Assembly (NCBI GenBank): GCA_030272155.1
Contig: CP126193.1
Span: 2,914,001-2,978,000 of the forward strand
Reading direction: 5' to 3'
DNA from: Tetradesmus obliquus
Taxonomy: Eukaryota > Chlorophyta > Chlorophyceae > Sphaeropleales > Scenedesmaceae
DNA length: 64,000 bases
Position 1 is the stretch's first letter; each line of letters begins with the position of its first letter. Shown one piece after another: positions 39,426-43,101 of the stretch. Both the position numbers and the translations under genes were made by a program. The notes below the pieces were generated by a model, which searched no databases, was not told the DNA's origin, and was given only the letters and a program-made list of their open reading frames with translations.

Positions 39426-42100
39426 GGGTTGACTGCTGCCAGGCGCACCTTTGCTGCTGCCTCGTCCAGCAAGTCTATGGCTGAGTCAGGCAGGCGGCGC
39501 TCAGGGATGTACCTGCGAGGGAGCATCCACGTGGAGATACAGTACCTTCAGCAAGCTTGGCTGTCATCTGCATCCTGTCAGTGCCAGATGTAGGCAGCTC
39601 AAACCACAAGCAGCTGCTTTGCACAGCAGCGTCCGACAAAACAAGCAGCACACTGCACGCACTGCAAGCGGCCCCTCTCACAGCGCCCCTCCCTCCTGCT
39701 GCTGTCTTTGATGTGCCACTCCACGCCGCGCTTTGCGCCGCACCTCTGCGCCGCCGCCACTGCTGCCGCCAATGCCCCCTGGCTATGGACAACAGCGTTG
39801 AAGAAACAAGCAGCACAGTGCACGCTACATTTGACTCCTCCCAGAGCGCTCTTGCTGCTGCTGCTGCTGCCTGGTCCCTGCTTCACGCCGCACTGTGCCG
39901 CCCTGCACGCCTGACTGCGCCGCACCTCTGTGCTGCCGCCACTGCTGCCGCCAGCGCCCCCTGGCTCAGCGCCACCCTGTGGAAGGCCTCGTAGTGTGGC
40001 GCCAGGCCCTGCAGCAGTGCCAGGCACTCCTGAGGGGAGGGCTCCTCCACCAGGATGGGCTGCGGCGGTGAATTAGAGAGAATGAACACCCAGGCAAACA
40101 GTAAGACATAAGTTGAAGTTAGTGGCCAAAGAGTGCCAGTACAAGGTCTGCCAGCAGTGCCAGGCACTCCTGCGGGGAGGGCTCCTCAACCAGGATGGGC
40201 TGCAGGCGTGAATTAGAGAGGATGAACACACAGGCAAACAGGAAGGCAAAAAAGTAAAGTTAGTGGCCTAAGAGTGCCAGTGCAAGGTGTGCCAGCAGAG
40301 CCAGGCATTCCTGCGGAGAGGGCTCCTCCACCAGGATGGGCTGCGGGGGTGAATCAGAGCAGCATAAACACCCAGAAACTGAAATCAGTGGTTGAAGGGG
40401 TGCCAGTGCGCGGCGATAGCAGCGCCAAGCCCTCCTGGGGGAGGGCTCCTCCACCAAGATGGGCTGCGGGGGTGGGTGAGGAGGTAAAACCATGAATTGA
40501 AGTCAGCCATTAAGTGATTGAGCCAGCACAGCACCTGGAACCTGCGGTTGAGCGCAGGGCCTGGCTCGATGTGCTGCCAGCCAGCCAGCCAGCCAGCTAG
40601 CGCGCCAATAAGCCACCCAGCTACTGCGCATTGACCACAGCACAGCCTCTGCATGCACCACAGCAGCTGGTGCAGCTGCTGATCAGTGCTGGGCTTTCCA
40701 CCCACCTGGAACCTGCGGTTGAGCGCGGGGTCTGGCTCGATGTGCTGCCGGAACTCGTCCGTGGTGGTGGCCCCAATGACCTGCAGCGCGCTGCGCGCCA
40801 GCGCCGGCTTGAGCATGTTGGCAAAGTCCAGCCCGCCCTCGCTGTTGCCCGCACCCACTGCAGTGGCCAAGAAACAGTTGTAACAACCATTGTTATTTCA
40901 AAAAGTTTGGACAGAGCGGCAAAGTCCAGCCCGCCCTCGCTGTTGCCCGCACCCACTGCAGTGGCCAAGAAAAAGTTGTAACAACCATTGTTATTTCAAA
41001 AGTTTGGACAGAGCGGCAAAGTCCAGCCCGCCCTCGCTGTTGCCCGCACCCACTGCGGCGGCGTATGACAATGTCACAAATGGGTTTTAGACAATCAGAG
41101 TTGACGGAAGAGGCAAAGTCCATCCTGTCCTTGCTGTTGCCCACACCCACTGCAGCAGTCAATGTGATTATATCAGAAGGTGTTGTGATATGATTTTGGA
41201 GAGAACGGCAAAGTCCAGCCCGCCCTCGCTGTTGCCCGCAACCCCTGCGGCGGCAGAATAATCATGACAAAGCATGCGACCATGTGATGAATTATAGTCT
41301 GATCAACACCGCCTGTTCTTGCCAATGATGTCCAATGCATGAAAAGTGCGCATCCTGAACTCTGACACAGCATGTGGTTCTCGTTATTGAACATCACCAC
41401 ACACTGCAGCCACCCCAGCCCCCGCCCCTTGCCCTCCCCCTTCCCAGCACGTGGATCACTACTAGTCATCCGCAGTAGTACTGTTACAGGGCTGACTGTT
41501 ATGTGTTTAGCTCACCCAGCACGTAAATTACTACTAGTCATTTGCAGTAGTACTGTTACAGGGCTGACTGTTATGTGCTTTGCTCACCCGGCACGTGGAT
41601 CTCGTCAATGAACAGCACCAAGCTGCCACCCCAATTGACATGCCCGCACCCCATTCCATCCCACCCTAAAAACAGCACATGCATAAACAACACAACCCTC
41701 ACCCAGCACGTGGATCTCATCAATGAAAAGCACCACGCCGCCACCCGGCCGCAACACGGCCTCAAAAGCATATATGTCTCTCCTAACAAGTTTTGGTCAA
41801 CAGCCCTCACCCAGCACGTGTATCTCATCAATGAACAGCACCACGCTGCCGCCAGCCGCCTCGCAGTCCTGCAGCAGCGCCTGCAGCCGCTCCTCAAACT
41901 CGCCGCGGTAGCTGGTGCCAGCCACCACGCTGCCCACGTCCAGCGCAATCAGGCGCTTGTTGGCCAGCCTGAAGCACAGCAGCAGCAGCAGCAGCAGCAG
42001 CGGCGGCAGCAGCAGCAGCAGCAGCAGCAGCGGCAGCAGTGAGGTCAGGGGACTTGACAGGTGCGTGTGTATGATACATGCAGCCTCGTAAGGGCTACGT

Positions 42101-42139
<39 letters not shown>

Positions 42140-43101
42140 TTGAACTCGCCGTGGTAGATGGTGCCAGCCACAACGCTGCCCACATCCAGCGCAATCAGGC
42201 GCTTGCTCGCCAGCCTTCAGCAGCAGCAGCAGCAGCAGCAACGGTGCAACAGACGGAGAAGTGAAGGTGGGCAGGCTGCACCAGGGCTGGCGTGCTGCTC
42301 AGCCAGGCTGCAGAGCACCGGGTGGGTGCAGGTTGCTAACGTCAAAAGCCGCTCACCCCCACGGTGGCGCCTGCCCCGCCATCATCTGTGCAATGCCCTC
42401 TACAACACCCAGCCACGCCCACCAGCGCCACACATTGCAGCTGAAAACGTCTGCTAATTTTTTGCTCACCCCGCGGTGACGCCGGCCTTGCCATGAGCTA
42501 CGCAACCTATTAATGCACCTTCGCTCAACACTGCACCAGCCCCGCTGGGATAACACACGCTGCAGCTGTCACTGGTCTGTTGACTTTTCTATTTCATGCT
42601 CACCCGCGTGGTGGCGCCTGCCCCGCCATCATCTGCGCGATGCCCTCCACGATGGCCGTCTTGCCCACCCCGGCCTCGCCCACCAGCAGCGGGTTGTGCT
42701 TGGAGCGGCGCAGCAGCACCTGCGCCGCCAGCAGCAGCAGCAGCTGCCATCATTTGGTGCTGTGTGGCGCTGAGGGGAGGCACCCTGCAGGTTTCCAAGA
42801 GCAGCTGCTGCTGCAAGAAGACACAGCTGTCACCAGCAATCCGTTGCTAATGCCTGCCTGATGCTGCTGGTGGCCTGACATGTGCATTCGCTCGTGCCAG
42901 CGTCAATCCGGAGCTGCCATCACTCTATTCACCGCACTGCCTGTGGTGCTGCCGCCTACTGCCGCCTGCTGCCGCCTGCTGCTGCTGTAATCGCACCTGC
43001 ATTGTGCGCTGGATGACATCCTGCCTGCCAATGACAGGGTCAAGCAGCCCGCGGCGCGCCTCTGCCGTCAGGTCACGCCCATAGCGCTGCAGCGCTGACA
43101 G
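35138..43101 (-). CDS. ClpB-like double AAA+ protein with zinc ribbon in place of the middle domain; 5' exons unresolved
   Basis: Hsp100/ClpB proteins are hexameric ATPases that unfold or disaggregate proteins. Exons on the minus strand: 43101-42997, 42719-42604, 41968-41811, 40857-40706, 40059-39926, 39512-38689, 38466-37045, 36748-36636, 36118-35138; phases all match and give 1334 residues, against about 900 for a whole ClpB. NBD1 is complete: YGRDLTAEARRGLLDPVIGR, Walker A GEAGVGKTAIVEG, Walker B VVLFIDEIHVL, NRRF, YIPERRLPDSAIDLLDEAA. NBD2 has Walker A GPSGVGKSSMAR, Walker B VVVFDDVERAHPD (second acidic residue Asp, not Glu), DGRLMDSLGHSI and sensor-2 GARPLRQLVRR. The coiled middle domain is missing; about 600 residues of Gln/Ser/Ala runs replace it, with a zinc ribbon CPHCG...CPSCGFRFLN near 38080-38165. 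No Clp N-domain was found. Introns are full of decayed exon-edge copies. Confidence 0.8.
36121..36160 (-). repeat. CTG run (sense) before the last ClpB-like acceptor
   Basis: About 13 triplets read CTG on the gene's sense strand. They abut the acceptor at 36119, at the right position for a polypyrimidine tract. Confidence 0.85.
36367..36452 (-). repeat. Intronic copy of the NBD2 Walker B exon 3' end
   Basis: This repeats the 3' end and donor of the exon at 36748-36636, including the bases coding VVVFDDVERAHPDVVGLLLQ. It sits about 250 bases downstream of the real exon in gene direction and has small differences. Confidence 0.85.
37936..38003 (-). repeat. Poly-Gln CAG tract in the ClpB-like exon
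   Basis: On the sense strand this is a CAG run coding about 20 Gln residues. It lies in the region that replaces the ClpB middle domain. Confidence 0.9.
38953..39028 (-). repeat. Poly-Ser AGC tract in the ClpB-like exon
   Basis: About 25 repeats, CAG-phase on the sense strand and read as AGC, give a run of about 25 serines. Confidence 0.9.
39364..39425 (-). repeat. Poly-Gln CAG tract after NBD1
   Basis: About 20 sense-strand CAG codons directly follow the end of NBD1 (KVRLAAVNP), where the middle domain would start. Confidence 0.9.
39735..39783 (-). repeat. Intronic copy of the AAAQR exon 3' end
   Basis: The 3' end and donor of the exon at 40059-39926 are repeated 182 bases away with few changes. 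Confidence 0.8.
40143..40466 (-). repeat. Three intronic copies of the VEEPSPQECL exon 5' end
   Basis: Segments around 40152-40205, 40292-40346 and 40411-40466 each repeat the acceptor and first 50 or so bases of the exon starting at 40059. Sequence changes differ in each copy. They are spaced about 120-140 bases apart with similar flanks, so they form a decayed tandem array. Confidence 0.9.
40532..40575 (-). repeat. Intronic copy of the NRRFQ exon 3' end
   Basis: This repeats the last 40 or so bases of the exon at 40857-40706 (PDPALNRRFQ) and its donor region. Confidence 0.85.
40918..41252 (-). repeat. Four intronic copies of the VGAGNSEGGLDFA exon 5' end
   Basis: Copies at about 40918-40972, 41016-41058, 41112-41156 and 41207-41252 repeat the acceptor and first 40 or so bases of the exon starting at 40857. 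The first two also share about 40 bases of flank with each other, which shows tandem duplication. The outer copies are more diverged. Confidence 0.92.
41450..41753 (-). repeat. Intronic copies of the IDEIHVLG exon 3' end
   Basis: Copies at 41701-41753 and 41586-41634 keep the donor and the Walker B coding sequence of the exon ending at 41811. Two shorter remnants near 41450 and 41515 lie in a duplicated unit of about 70 bases (CAGTAGTACTGTTACAGGGC appears twice). Confidence 0.88.
42138..42213 (-). repeat. Intronic copy of the NKRLIALDVGSVVAG exon 5' end
   Basis: This segment of about 75 bases repeats the start of the exon at 41968-41811 with a few changes. It is preceded by a CAG-repeat block like that before the real exon. 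Confidence 0.9.
42352..42500 (-). repeat. Two intronic copies of the Walker A exon 3' end
   Basis: Segments near 42352-42405 and 42464-42500 repeat the 3' end and donor of the exon at 42719-42604 (VEGIAQMMAGQAPP). The first copy is close to intact; the second is heavily mutated. Confidence 0.88.

What the first reader, a model, noticed from the sequence alone, without database searches (positions are those of the whole stretch)
39735..42500. Exon-edge echoes: introns of the ClpB-like gene are packed with decayed copies of adjacent exon ends
At least 13 intronic segments repeat either the first 40-75 bases or the last 40-85 bases of the neighbouring exon together with its splice site. Every intron around NBD1 has them: two copies of the Walker A exon end, one of the NKRLIALDVG exon start, two to four of the IDEIHVLG exon end, four of the VGAGNSEGG exon start, one of the NRRFQ exon end, three of the VEEPSPQECL exon start and one of the AAAQR exon end. 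Divergence differs between copies, so they accumulated over time. The pattern suggests repeated tandem duplication across exon-intron boundaries as a way of lengthening introns and multiplying splice sites. I know of no named class for this.
Basis: partly seen in the sequence, partly recalled or inferred. Interest (0 to 1): 0.82.

Follow-up and report, generated by a model that had tools for sequence, protein, structure and literature searches.

The report
Introns carrying copies of exon edges
In this green alga some genes have introns filled with repeated, slowly decaying copies of the neighbouring exon's end and its splice site, apparently made by repeated short tandem duplications across the exon border; this shows one way introns can grow without changing the protein.

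Summary
Five introns of the ClpB-like gene were tested. Four carry 15 copies of adjacent exon edges above the best of 200 shuffles: 13 clear, 2 marginal. The fifth carries none.

It is not a one-gene oddity. In 254 kb of the same genome (window plus 19 readable 10-kb samples), 56 of 361 predicted exon edges match the adjacent intron side. Controls: 4/329 opposite side, 6/198 mid-exon, 0/361 random introns, 0/361 reverse-complemented. Nearest copies mostly sit 90-159 bp away (37 of 56 edges) or 212-254 bp (14). They cluster in certain genes.

Best explanation: recurrent tandem duplication of blocks of about 120 bp across splice sites. The copies stay intronic and decay; as a group they are not mini-exons, and a Tetradesmus obliquus GMP synthase protein skips them.

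Unexplained: the exon-derived part resembles its parent far better than the intron part copied with it. A simple clock predicts about 94% of pairs keep a recognisable intron part; 15 of 41 do. I favour short-tract conversion from the constrained exon, unproven.

A purpose is not shown. Single such duplications are published; recurrent arrays I did not find in my searches.

The parts
42997..43101 (-). Exon Ea of the ClpB-like gene (..GLLDPVIGRQDVIQRTMQ), donor at low end; no echoes
42604..42719 (-). Exon Eb (Walker A exon, ..LLVGEAGVGKTAIVEG..)
42469..42503 (-). Echo of Eb end, marginal (26/35, site TG)
   Evidence: score 25 vs best shuffle 24
42363..42400 (-). Echo of Eb end (36/38, GT kept)
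42170..42214 (-). Echo of Ec start (41/45, AG kept), spacing 246
41811..41968 (-). Exon Ec (LANKRLIALDVG..LFIDEIHVL)
   Evidence: the self-trained finder merged this exon with its echo, so the border is set by hand
41703..41745 (-). Echo of Ec end (39/43, GT kept)
41588..41630 (-). Echo of Ec end (38/43, GT kept)
41368..41412 (-). Echo of Ec end, marginal (34/43)
   Evidence: score 32 vs best shuffle 29
41443..41596 (-). 72-bp tandem array in intron Ec-Ed; shares about 16 bases with the Ec end; not counted as an echo
41207..41243 (-). Echo of Ed start (36/37, AG kept)
41112..41149 (-). Echo of Ed start (33/38, AG kept; five changes, all amino-acid changing)
41015..41052 (-). Echo of Ed start (38/38, AG kept); its intron flank is much more diverged
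40918..40955 (-). Echo of Ed start (38/38, AG kept), intron flank also nearly identical: recent 98-bp unit
40706..40857 (-). Exon Ed (VGAGNSEGG..NRRFQ)
40535..40578 (-). Echo of Ed end (42/44, GT kept)
40420..40463 (-). Echo of Ee start (40/44, AG kept)
40296..40340 (-). Echo of Ee start (41/45, AG kept)
40155..40199 (-). Echo of Ee start (43/45, AG kept)
39926..40059 (-). Exon Ee (PILVEEPSPQECL..AAAQ)
39744..39784 (-). Echo of Ee end (37/41, GT kept)
39420..39512 (-). Exon Ef (YIPERRLPDSAIDLL..), high end is the acceptor; low end approximate; no echo
36306..36451 (-). Block copied from the NBD2 exon end (HSVVVFDDVERAHPD..) with its intron start, spacing 253
36636..36748 (-). Parent exon of the 36306-36451 copy
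48670..48912 (+). GMP synthase exon whose end is echoed downstream
48983..49134 (+). Two echoes of the GMP synthase exon end (spacings 109, 219); absent from the T. obliquus protein P0121

Best explanation
Shown: in certain genes of this alga, exon edges with their splice site (some 20-105 bp of exon) recur in the adjacent intron at spacings of mostly 90-160 bp or about twice that, and in part of the pairs the whole spacing is homologous, as head-to-tail duplication requires. The copy joined to the rest of the exon is taken to be the one in use; the others lie in the intron. Inferred: a local repair or replication error (fill-in at staggered nicks or breaks, or slippage) makes the duplications. 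They persist because the spliceosome still joins the proper exon ends, so a border-crossing duplication is nearly neutral and lengthens the intron, whereas one inside an exon changes the protein. Inferred, least certain: the exon-derived part stays similar to its parent for longer than its intron flank because the parent exon hardly changes and keeps re-converting the copies over short tracts, while the intron part diverges until it can no longer pair.
For: Adjacent side 56/361 edges, against opposite side 4/329, mid-exon 6/198, random introns 0/361, reverse complement 0/361 (Fisher tests). The positional profile is highest at the border (0.18 acceptor, 0.21 donor) and low just inside the intron (0.05-0.09); elsewhere it ranges 0.06-0.145. 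Splice dinucleotide kept in 40/45 acceptor and 36/47 donor copies. Nearest copy 90-159 bp away at 37 of 56 edges, 212-254 bp at 14. Homology over 85% or more of the spacing in 17 of 42 nearest pairs, among them a 98-bp unit at 97-100%. Arrays of period 70-220: 14 at exon edges, 3 intronic, 4 unassigned, 1 inside an exon; random placement predicts 25-36% at edges; at 33%, p = 4e-5 for 14/17, 0.0016 for 14/21. Copies lack a second splice site beyond chance; 8 of 86 hold stops and 18 of 86 gaps in the exon part. GMP synthase P0121 (labelled T. obliquus, UniRef) matches my spliced 435 aa (100% in the table, two differences by eye) and has no echo. By eye, relatives' proteins P0062 and P0209 run through the junctions without copies.
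Against: A plain neutral clock fails: 15 of 41 nearest pairs keep the intron part where equal rates predict 94%; the intron part would need to change 3-4 times faster (which assumes the copied block equals the spacing). 22 of 42 nearest pairs show homology over less than 60% of the spacing. Nonsynonymous differences (0.049 per site) are 0.27 of synonymous (0.179), 95% range 0.20-0.36; a neutral copy beside a constrained parent should give about 0.5 or more. Changes unique to one copy are also somewhat synonymous-biased (46 vs 34.3 expected, p 0.017). So copies may be partly constrained, and conversion alone does not give that ratio. Conversion is inferred, not observed. The edge excess in arrays may partly be longer detectability. 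Most exon borders rest on a finder that I trained on this same sequence.
Confidence: 0.62

Rival explanations
1. The copies are functional alternative exon ends or mini-exons, kept by selection because some transcripts use them.
For: Nonsynonymous/synonymous difference ratio 0.27 (0.20-0.36) between copy and parent; many copies translate identically to the parent; exon part outlives intron part; a few donor copies are preceded by a good acceptor and have an in-frame length, e.g. L008 7040 and L020 732.
Against: No excess of acceptor-like sites before 42 donor copies or donor-like sites after 44 acceptor copies; stops not depleted, 9 vs 9.3 expected; AG or GT lost in 16 of 92 copies, GC counted as lost; the T. 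obliquus GMP synthase protein lacks them (one gene only).
Confidence: 0.12
2. Ordinary tandem duplication with neutral decay only: no conversion, no constraint, and no preference for borders; the edge peak arises because the parent exon is constrained.
For: Constraint of the parent alone makes exon parts look younger; in the 15 pairs with most of the intron part recovered, exon divergence is 6.3% and intron 16.7%.
Against: The clock simulation misses the observed loss of intron homology by a wide margin; long arrays lie at edges 14 of 17 times (14 of 21 with unassigned ones) against 25-36% expected.
Confidence: 0.2
3. Intron-gain mobile elements (introners) that carry splice sites.
For: Repeats with splice sites inside introns.
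Against: Copies are gene-specific: a 161-base Ed query found its own gene (6 of 7 places) and one 73% place on another contig (the tool scores only its best candidates); edge queries in random introns 0/361.
Confidence: 0.02
4. Assembly artefact from mis-joined or uncollapsed reads.
For: Raw reads not available here.
Against: Copies differ from the parent by 0 to about 20% in the exon part, with different intron flanks, in many independent loci on many contigs.
Confidence: 0.04

Closest known systems
[quoted passage not shown] passages read)
   Different: There it made one new intron and an inserted exon sequence; here copies stay intronic as far as tested, recur as arrays, and occur on donor and acceptor sides and in many genes.
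AGGT model of intron gain (Rogers 1989 and Hellsten 2011, as described in PMC4974935; the originals not seen)
   Same: Tandem duplication next to splice motifs leaves the peptide unchanged.
   Different: The model duplicates an exonic AGGT and makes a new intron. Echoed donors end in AG no more often than others (18/29 vs 110/181).
Novel intron positions by tandem duplication in Drosophila (Lehmann 2010, PMC2891723; passages read)
   Same: Tandem duplication of short coding stretches tied to splice motifs.
   Different: 5 of 31 cases there, by proto-splice sites within coding sequence, giving novel introns.
Small tandem duplications by fill-in at DNA breaks with 3' overhangs (CST-Pol alpha, PMC8355091; passages read)
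   Same: A DNA-level route to short head-to-tail duplications.
   Different: Introduced there as short (<100 bp) insertions in the human genome and tested in mouse and human cells; the passages read say nothing of exon borders.
Tandem exon duplication (recalled)
   Same: Exon sequence repeated in the adjacent intron.
   Different: Whole exons with both splice sites; here only one edge is copied.

Membership tests
Tandem genomic duplication (general) | Direct copies, same orientation, close by | tested here: met
   Window 26 direct vs 1 inverted local pairs; 19 loci 230 vs 7; reverse complement 0/361
Tandem genomic duplication (general) | Copied block fills the whole spacing between copies | tested here: inconclusive
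   Of 42 nearest pairs, 17 at 85% or more of the spacing, 3 at 60-85%, 22 below 60%
AGGT intron-gain model | AGGT at the duplicated site | tested here: not met
   Echoed donors 18/29 end in AG vs 110/181 not echoed; echoed acceptors 7/26 start with GT vs 31/186: no clear excess
AGGT intron-gain model | A new intron appears in the mRNA | tested here: not met
   Tested in GMP synthase only: P0121 has no extra exon
Tandem exon duplication | Copy has splice sites on both sides | tested here: not met
   Far side at chance over 42 donor and 44 acceptor copies; single exceptions are possible
Introner elements | One sequence family in many unrelated introns | tested here: not met
   Ed query: 6 of 7 places in its own gene; edge queries in random introns 0/361
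Minisatellite | Tandem arrays unrelated to gene structure | tested here: not met
   Arrays of period 70-220: 14 at edges, 3 intronic, 4 unassigned, 1 in an exon. By contrast only 3 of 26 arrays with period under 60 are at edges

The most novel reading that the evidence does not exclude
Exon borders in this lineage are hotspots of about 120-bp tandem duplication, and the copies form small satellites that evolve in concert with their parent exon edge. They exchange sequence with the constrained exon and so both lengthen introns and act as a local reservoir of variants for exon ends and splice sites.
Probability: 0.3. Interest if true: 0.8.

Novelty: new variant of a known kind. Interest (0 to 1): 0.62.

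Why it matters
How introns lengthen, and why some genes have many splice-site decoys, is usually put down to transposons or anonymous indels (my general knowledge). Here the source of part of the intron can be read directly: it is the neighbouring exon border. The echo arrays span roughly 13.5 kb, next to 98.5 kb of sampled intron (a rough figure, since arrays from the two ends can overlap and some flanks are not in that total). Tetradesmus obliquus has long introns (mean 462 bp against 230-302 in the four other algae of one table; PMC5966456, passages read), so this may be one contributor. Each well-kept copy also brings a near-perfect competing splice site, a natural experiment in how the spliceosome picks the right one of several almost identical sites about 120 bp apart.

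Tried and rejected
Mini-exon idea: donor copies in L020 and L008 looked like complete exons with AG on the far side, but over 42 donor and 44 acceptor copies AG and GT there are at chance. AGGT logic: no clear enrichment. A frame rule on spacing: spacing mod 3 is even, 30/28/28. Coding selection: the ratio is suggestive, but stops are not depleted; left open. Neutral clock: rejected at equal rates; kept as a rival with faster introns. Monotonic age with distance: not seen by eye. What makes some genes hot: GC3, intron length and intron GC were listed and show no clean separation by eye; GMP synthase is highly conserved yet has only one echoed edge in this annotation. An independent set of five more loci was never obtained. 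Rows dropped: 6 of 92 copies with under 20 bp ungapped homology; L009 left out because it reads as N; triplet runs masked; exons under score 12 or 60 bp left out (229 of 833 kept); edges with fewer than 100 flank bases or 10 or more masked bases left out. The finder mis-called exon Ec of ClpB and the start of the exon at 24941, so their echoes are missing from the genome-wide counts. An earlier count gave no count of runs without echoes that I rely on; one search shows 13 of 31.
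Full report
What was checked. The window is G000:C3:2914001-2978000 of a 104.7-Mb genome in 17 contigs. A GMP synthase spliced from the window matches a protein labelled Tetradesmus obliquus in UniRef (P0121; identity 100% and coverage 100% in the table, two differences in 435 by eye), so the host is that alga or a close relative; genome size and GC are close to the published figures (108 Mb, 57%; PMC5966456, passages read). 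The gene of the finding lies on the minus strand. Joining its exons gives a ClpB-type NBD1. A transcript-derived protein of a relative, P0062 (83% identical over 70% of the query), runs through the Ea-Eb-Ec-Ed joins with no copies in between.

The observation. With borders fixed by that spliced protein, 15 intronic copies of exon edges exceed the best of 200 shuffles of their own intron: 13 clearly, 2 marginally. Four of the five introns have them.

Is it general? I took 10-kb samples at fixed places, 600 kb into each of the 17 contigs and 1.6 Mb into contigs 1-3; one of the 20 reads as N. I trained a simple exon finder on the window and the other 19 (254 kb) and kept 229 confident exons of 833. 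Joined predictions from seven of eight genes hit Pfam families (adaptin N-terminal, GH3, Arf, kinase, TLC, acyltransferase, GMP synthase); one had no hit. Each edge was searched in its flank up to the next confident exon or 1,500 bp. Edge 40-mers match the adjacent side in 26/181 acceptor and 30/180 donor cases. The same edges match the other side of the exon in 1/166 and 3/163, mid-exon 40-mers match in 2/98 and 4/100, and random introns or reversed queries in 0/361 each. The profile across the border is highest at the border, 0.18-0.21, drops to 0.05-0.09 just inside the intron, and elsewhere varies between 0.06 and 0.145. In the 19 loci, local direct repeat pairs outnumber inverted ones 230 to 7.

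Anatomy. There are 92 copies at 56 edges. Nearest copies sit 90-159 bp from the parent at 37 of 56 edges, 171-196 bp at 3, 212-254 bp at 14, and 51 and 310 bp at one each. The ungapped exon part is 20-105 bp (86 of the 92 copies). AG or GT is kept in 40/45 and 36/47 copies. Beyond the copy's other end there is no splice site more often than chance, so as a group these are not mini-exons. Intron flanks of parent and copy are related in about half of the pairs (score 20 or more in 47/92, against 7% of mismatched pairs). In gapped alignments 17 of 42 nearest pairs match over 85% or more of the spacing, as tandem duplication requires; one of these (L013) does so through exon sequence; 22 match over less than 60%. 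Tandem arrays with period 70-220 lie at exon edges 14 times, inside introns 3 times, in unassigned sequence 4 times and inside an exon once; some of the intronic and unassigned ones look like edges on inspection. Random placement would put 25-36% at edges.

The puzzle. If a block is copied once and then drifts, its exon part should differ from the parent by little more than one branch of change and its intron part by two. In a simulation with equal rates 94% of 41 nearest pairs should keep a recognisable intron part; 15 of 41 do. Rates three to four times higher in the intron part are needed to fit. Of 20 pairs whose exon parts are at least 97% identical, the intron parts have a median gapped identity of 0.71 against a mean of 0.61 for mismatched pairs, and 11 of 20 exceed the mismatched 95th percentile. 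Synonymous differences (184 of 1028 sites) exceed nonsynonymous (147 of 3015) more than a neutral copy beside a constrained parent should show (ratio 0.27, range 0.20-0.36). Changes unique to one copy are 46 synonymous, 62 missense and 6 stops, against 34.3, 76.9 and 2.8 expected (p 0.017 for synonymous against the rest). So stops are not depleted, and splice sites decay too. Three readings remain: short-tract conversion from the parent exon, weak constraint on some copies, or unusually fast introns. Conversion explains the extra similarity of the exon part but does not by itself give a ratio below 0.5, so at best it is part of the answer.

Gene clustering. Echoed edges are strongly clumped by gene (55 of 422 edges; dispersion chi-square 105.8, 30 df): coatomer gamma locus 10/26, GH3 locus 9/24, TLC transporter locus 5/11, a kinase locus 5/12, the window's minus strand 6/30, against 1/87 on the window's plus strand and none in 13 of 31 strand-runs. 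Internal exons echoed on both sides number 11 of 197 against 3.1 expected. I have no explanation.

How it most likely works. Inferred from the anatomy: a repair or replication error duplicates about 120 bp. Across a splice site this is tolerated because the copy joined to the exon body is still used, so the intron grows by one unit. The near absence of spacings below 90 bp might reflect selection against two equal splice sites too close together, or the size preference of the duplication process; arrays of period under 60 are seldom at edges (3 of 26), but that contrast is confounded by array length.

Against what is known. [quoted passage not shown] Tandem duplication is a recognised route to new introns (PMC2891723, passages read). 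A DNA chemistry for short tandem duplications is known (PMC8355091, passages read). Recurrent exon-edge arrays that stay intronic, in many genes of one genome, I did not find in eight searches of the held library, of which I saw listings; most papers of subscription journals are not held there.

Limits. One genome, 254 kb, no transcripts of this strain, no sister genome, a finder trained on the same data, and no independent replication set (the request for five more loci did not complete).

Noticed in passing
window 24708-25025: Acceptor-side echo in another gene: an exon start (VAELCRLSFPDKPWMALAGLLHGLGK) preceded by a 148-bp copy. It looks inositol-oxygenase-like by eye (name recalled, not tested).
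   Followed up: partly
window 12625-13034: 144-bp in-frame tandem repeat inside a cysteine-rich coding exon. All six arrays found inside exons have periods that are multiples of three (21, 33, 36, 144, 384, 384).
   Followed up: no
window 37768-39424 and elsewhere: Many CTG/CAG runs, in predicted exons of the ClpB-like gene (glutamine runs) and in introns.
   Followed up: no
L005 (G000:C13:4904276-4904397): A 73% identical place on another contig, probably a ClpB paralogue exon; could show whether paralogues echo at the same borders.
   Followed up: no
L008, L018, L020, L022 versus L010, L012, L016, L017, L021, L026: Echoes are concentrated in some genes and absent from others, sometimes next door (ClpB-like many, GMP synthase one edge); cause unknown.
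   Followed up: partly
L010 7543-8332, 9145-9954: 384-bp in-frame tandem repeats in proline/serine-rich exons.
   Followed up: no
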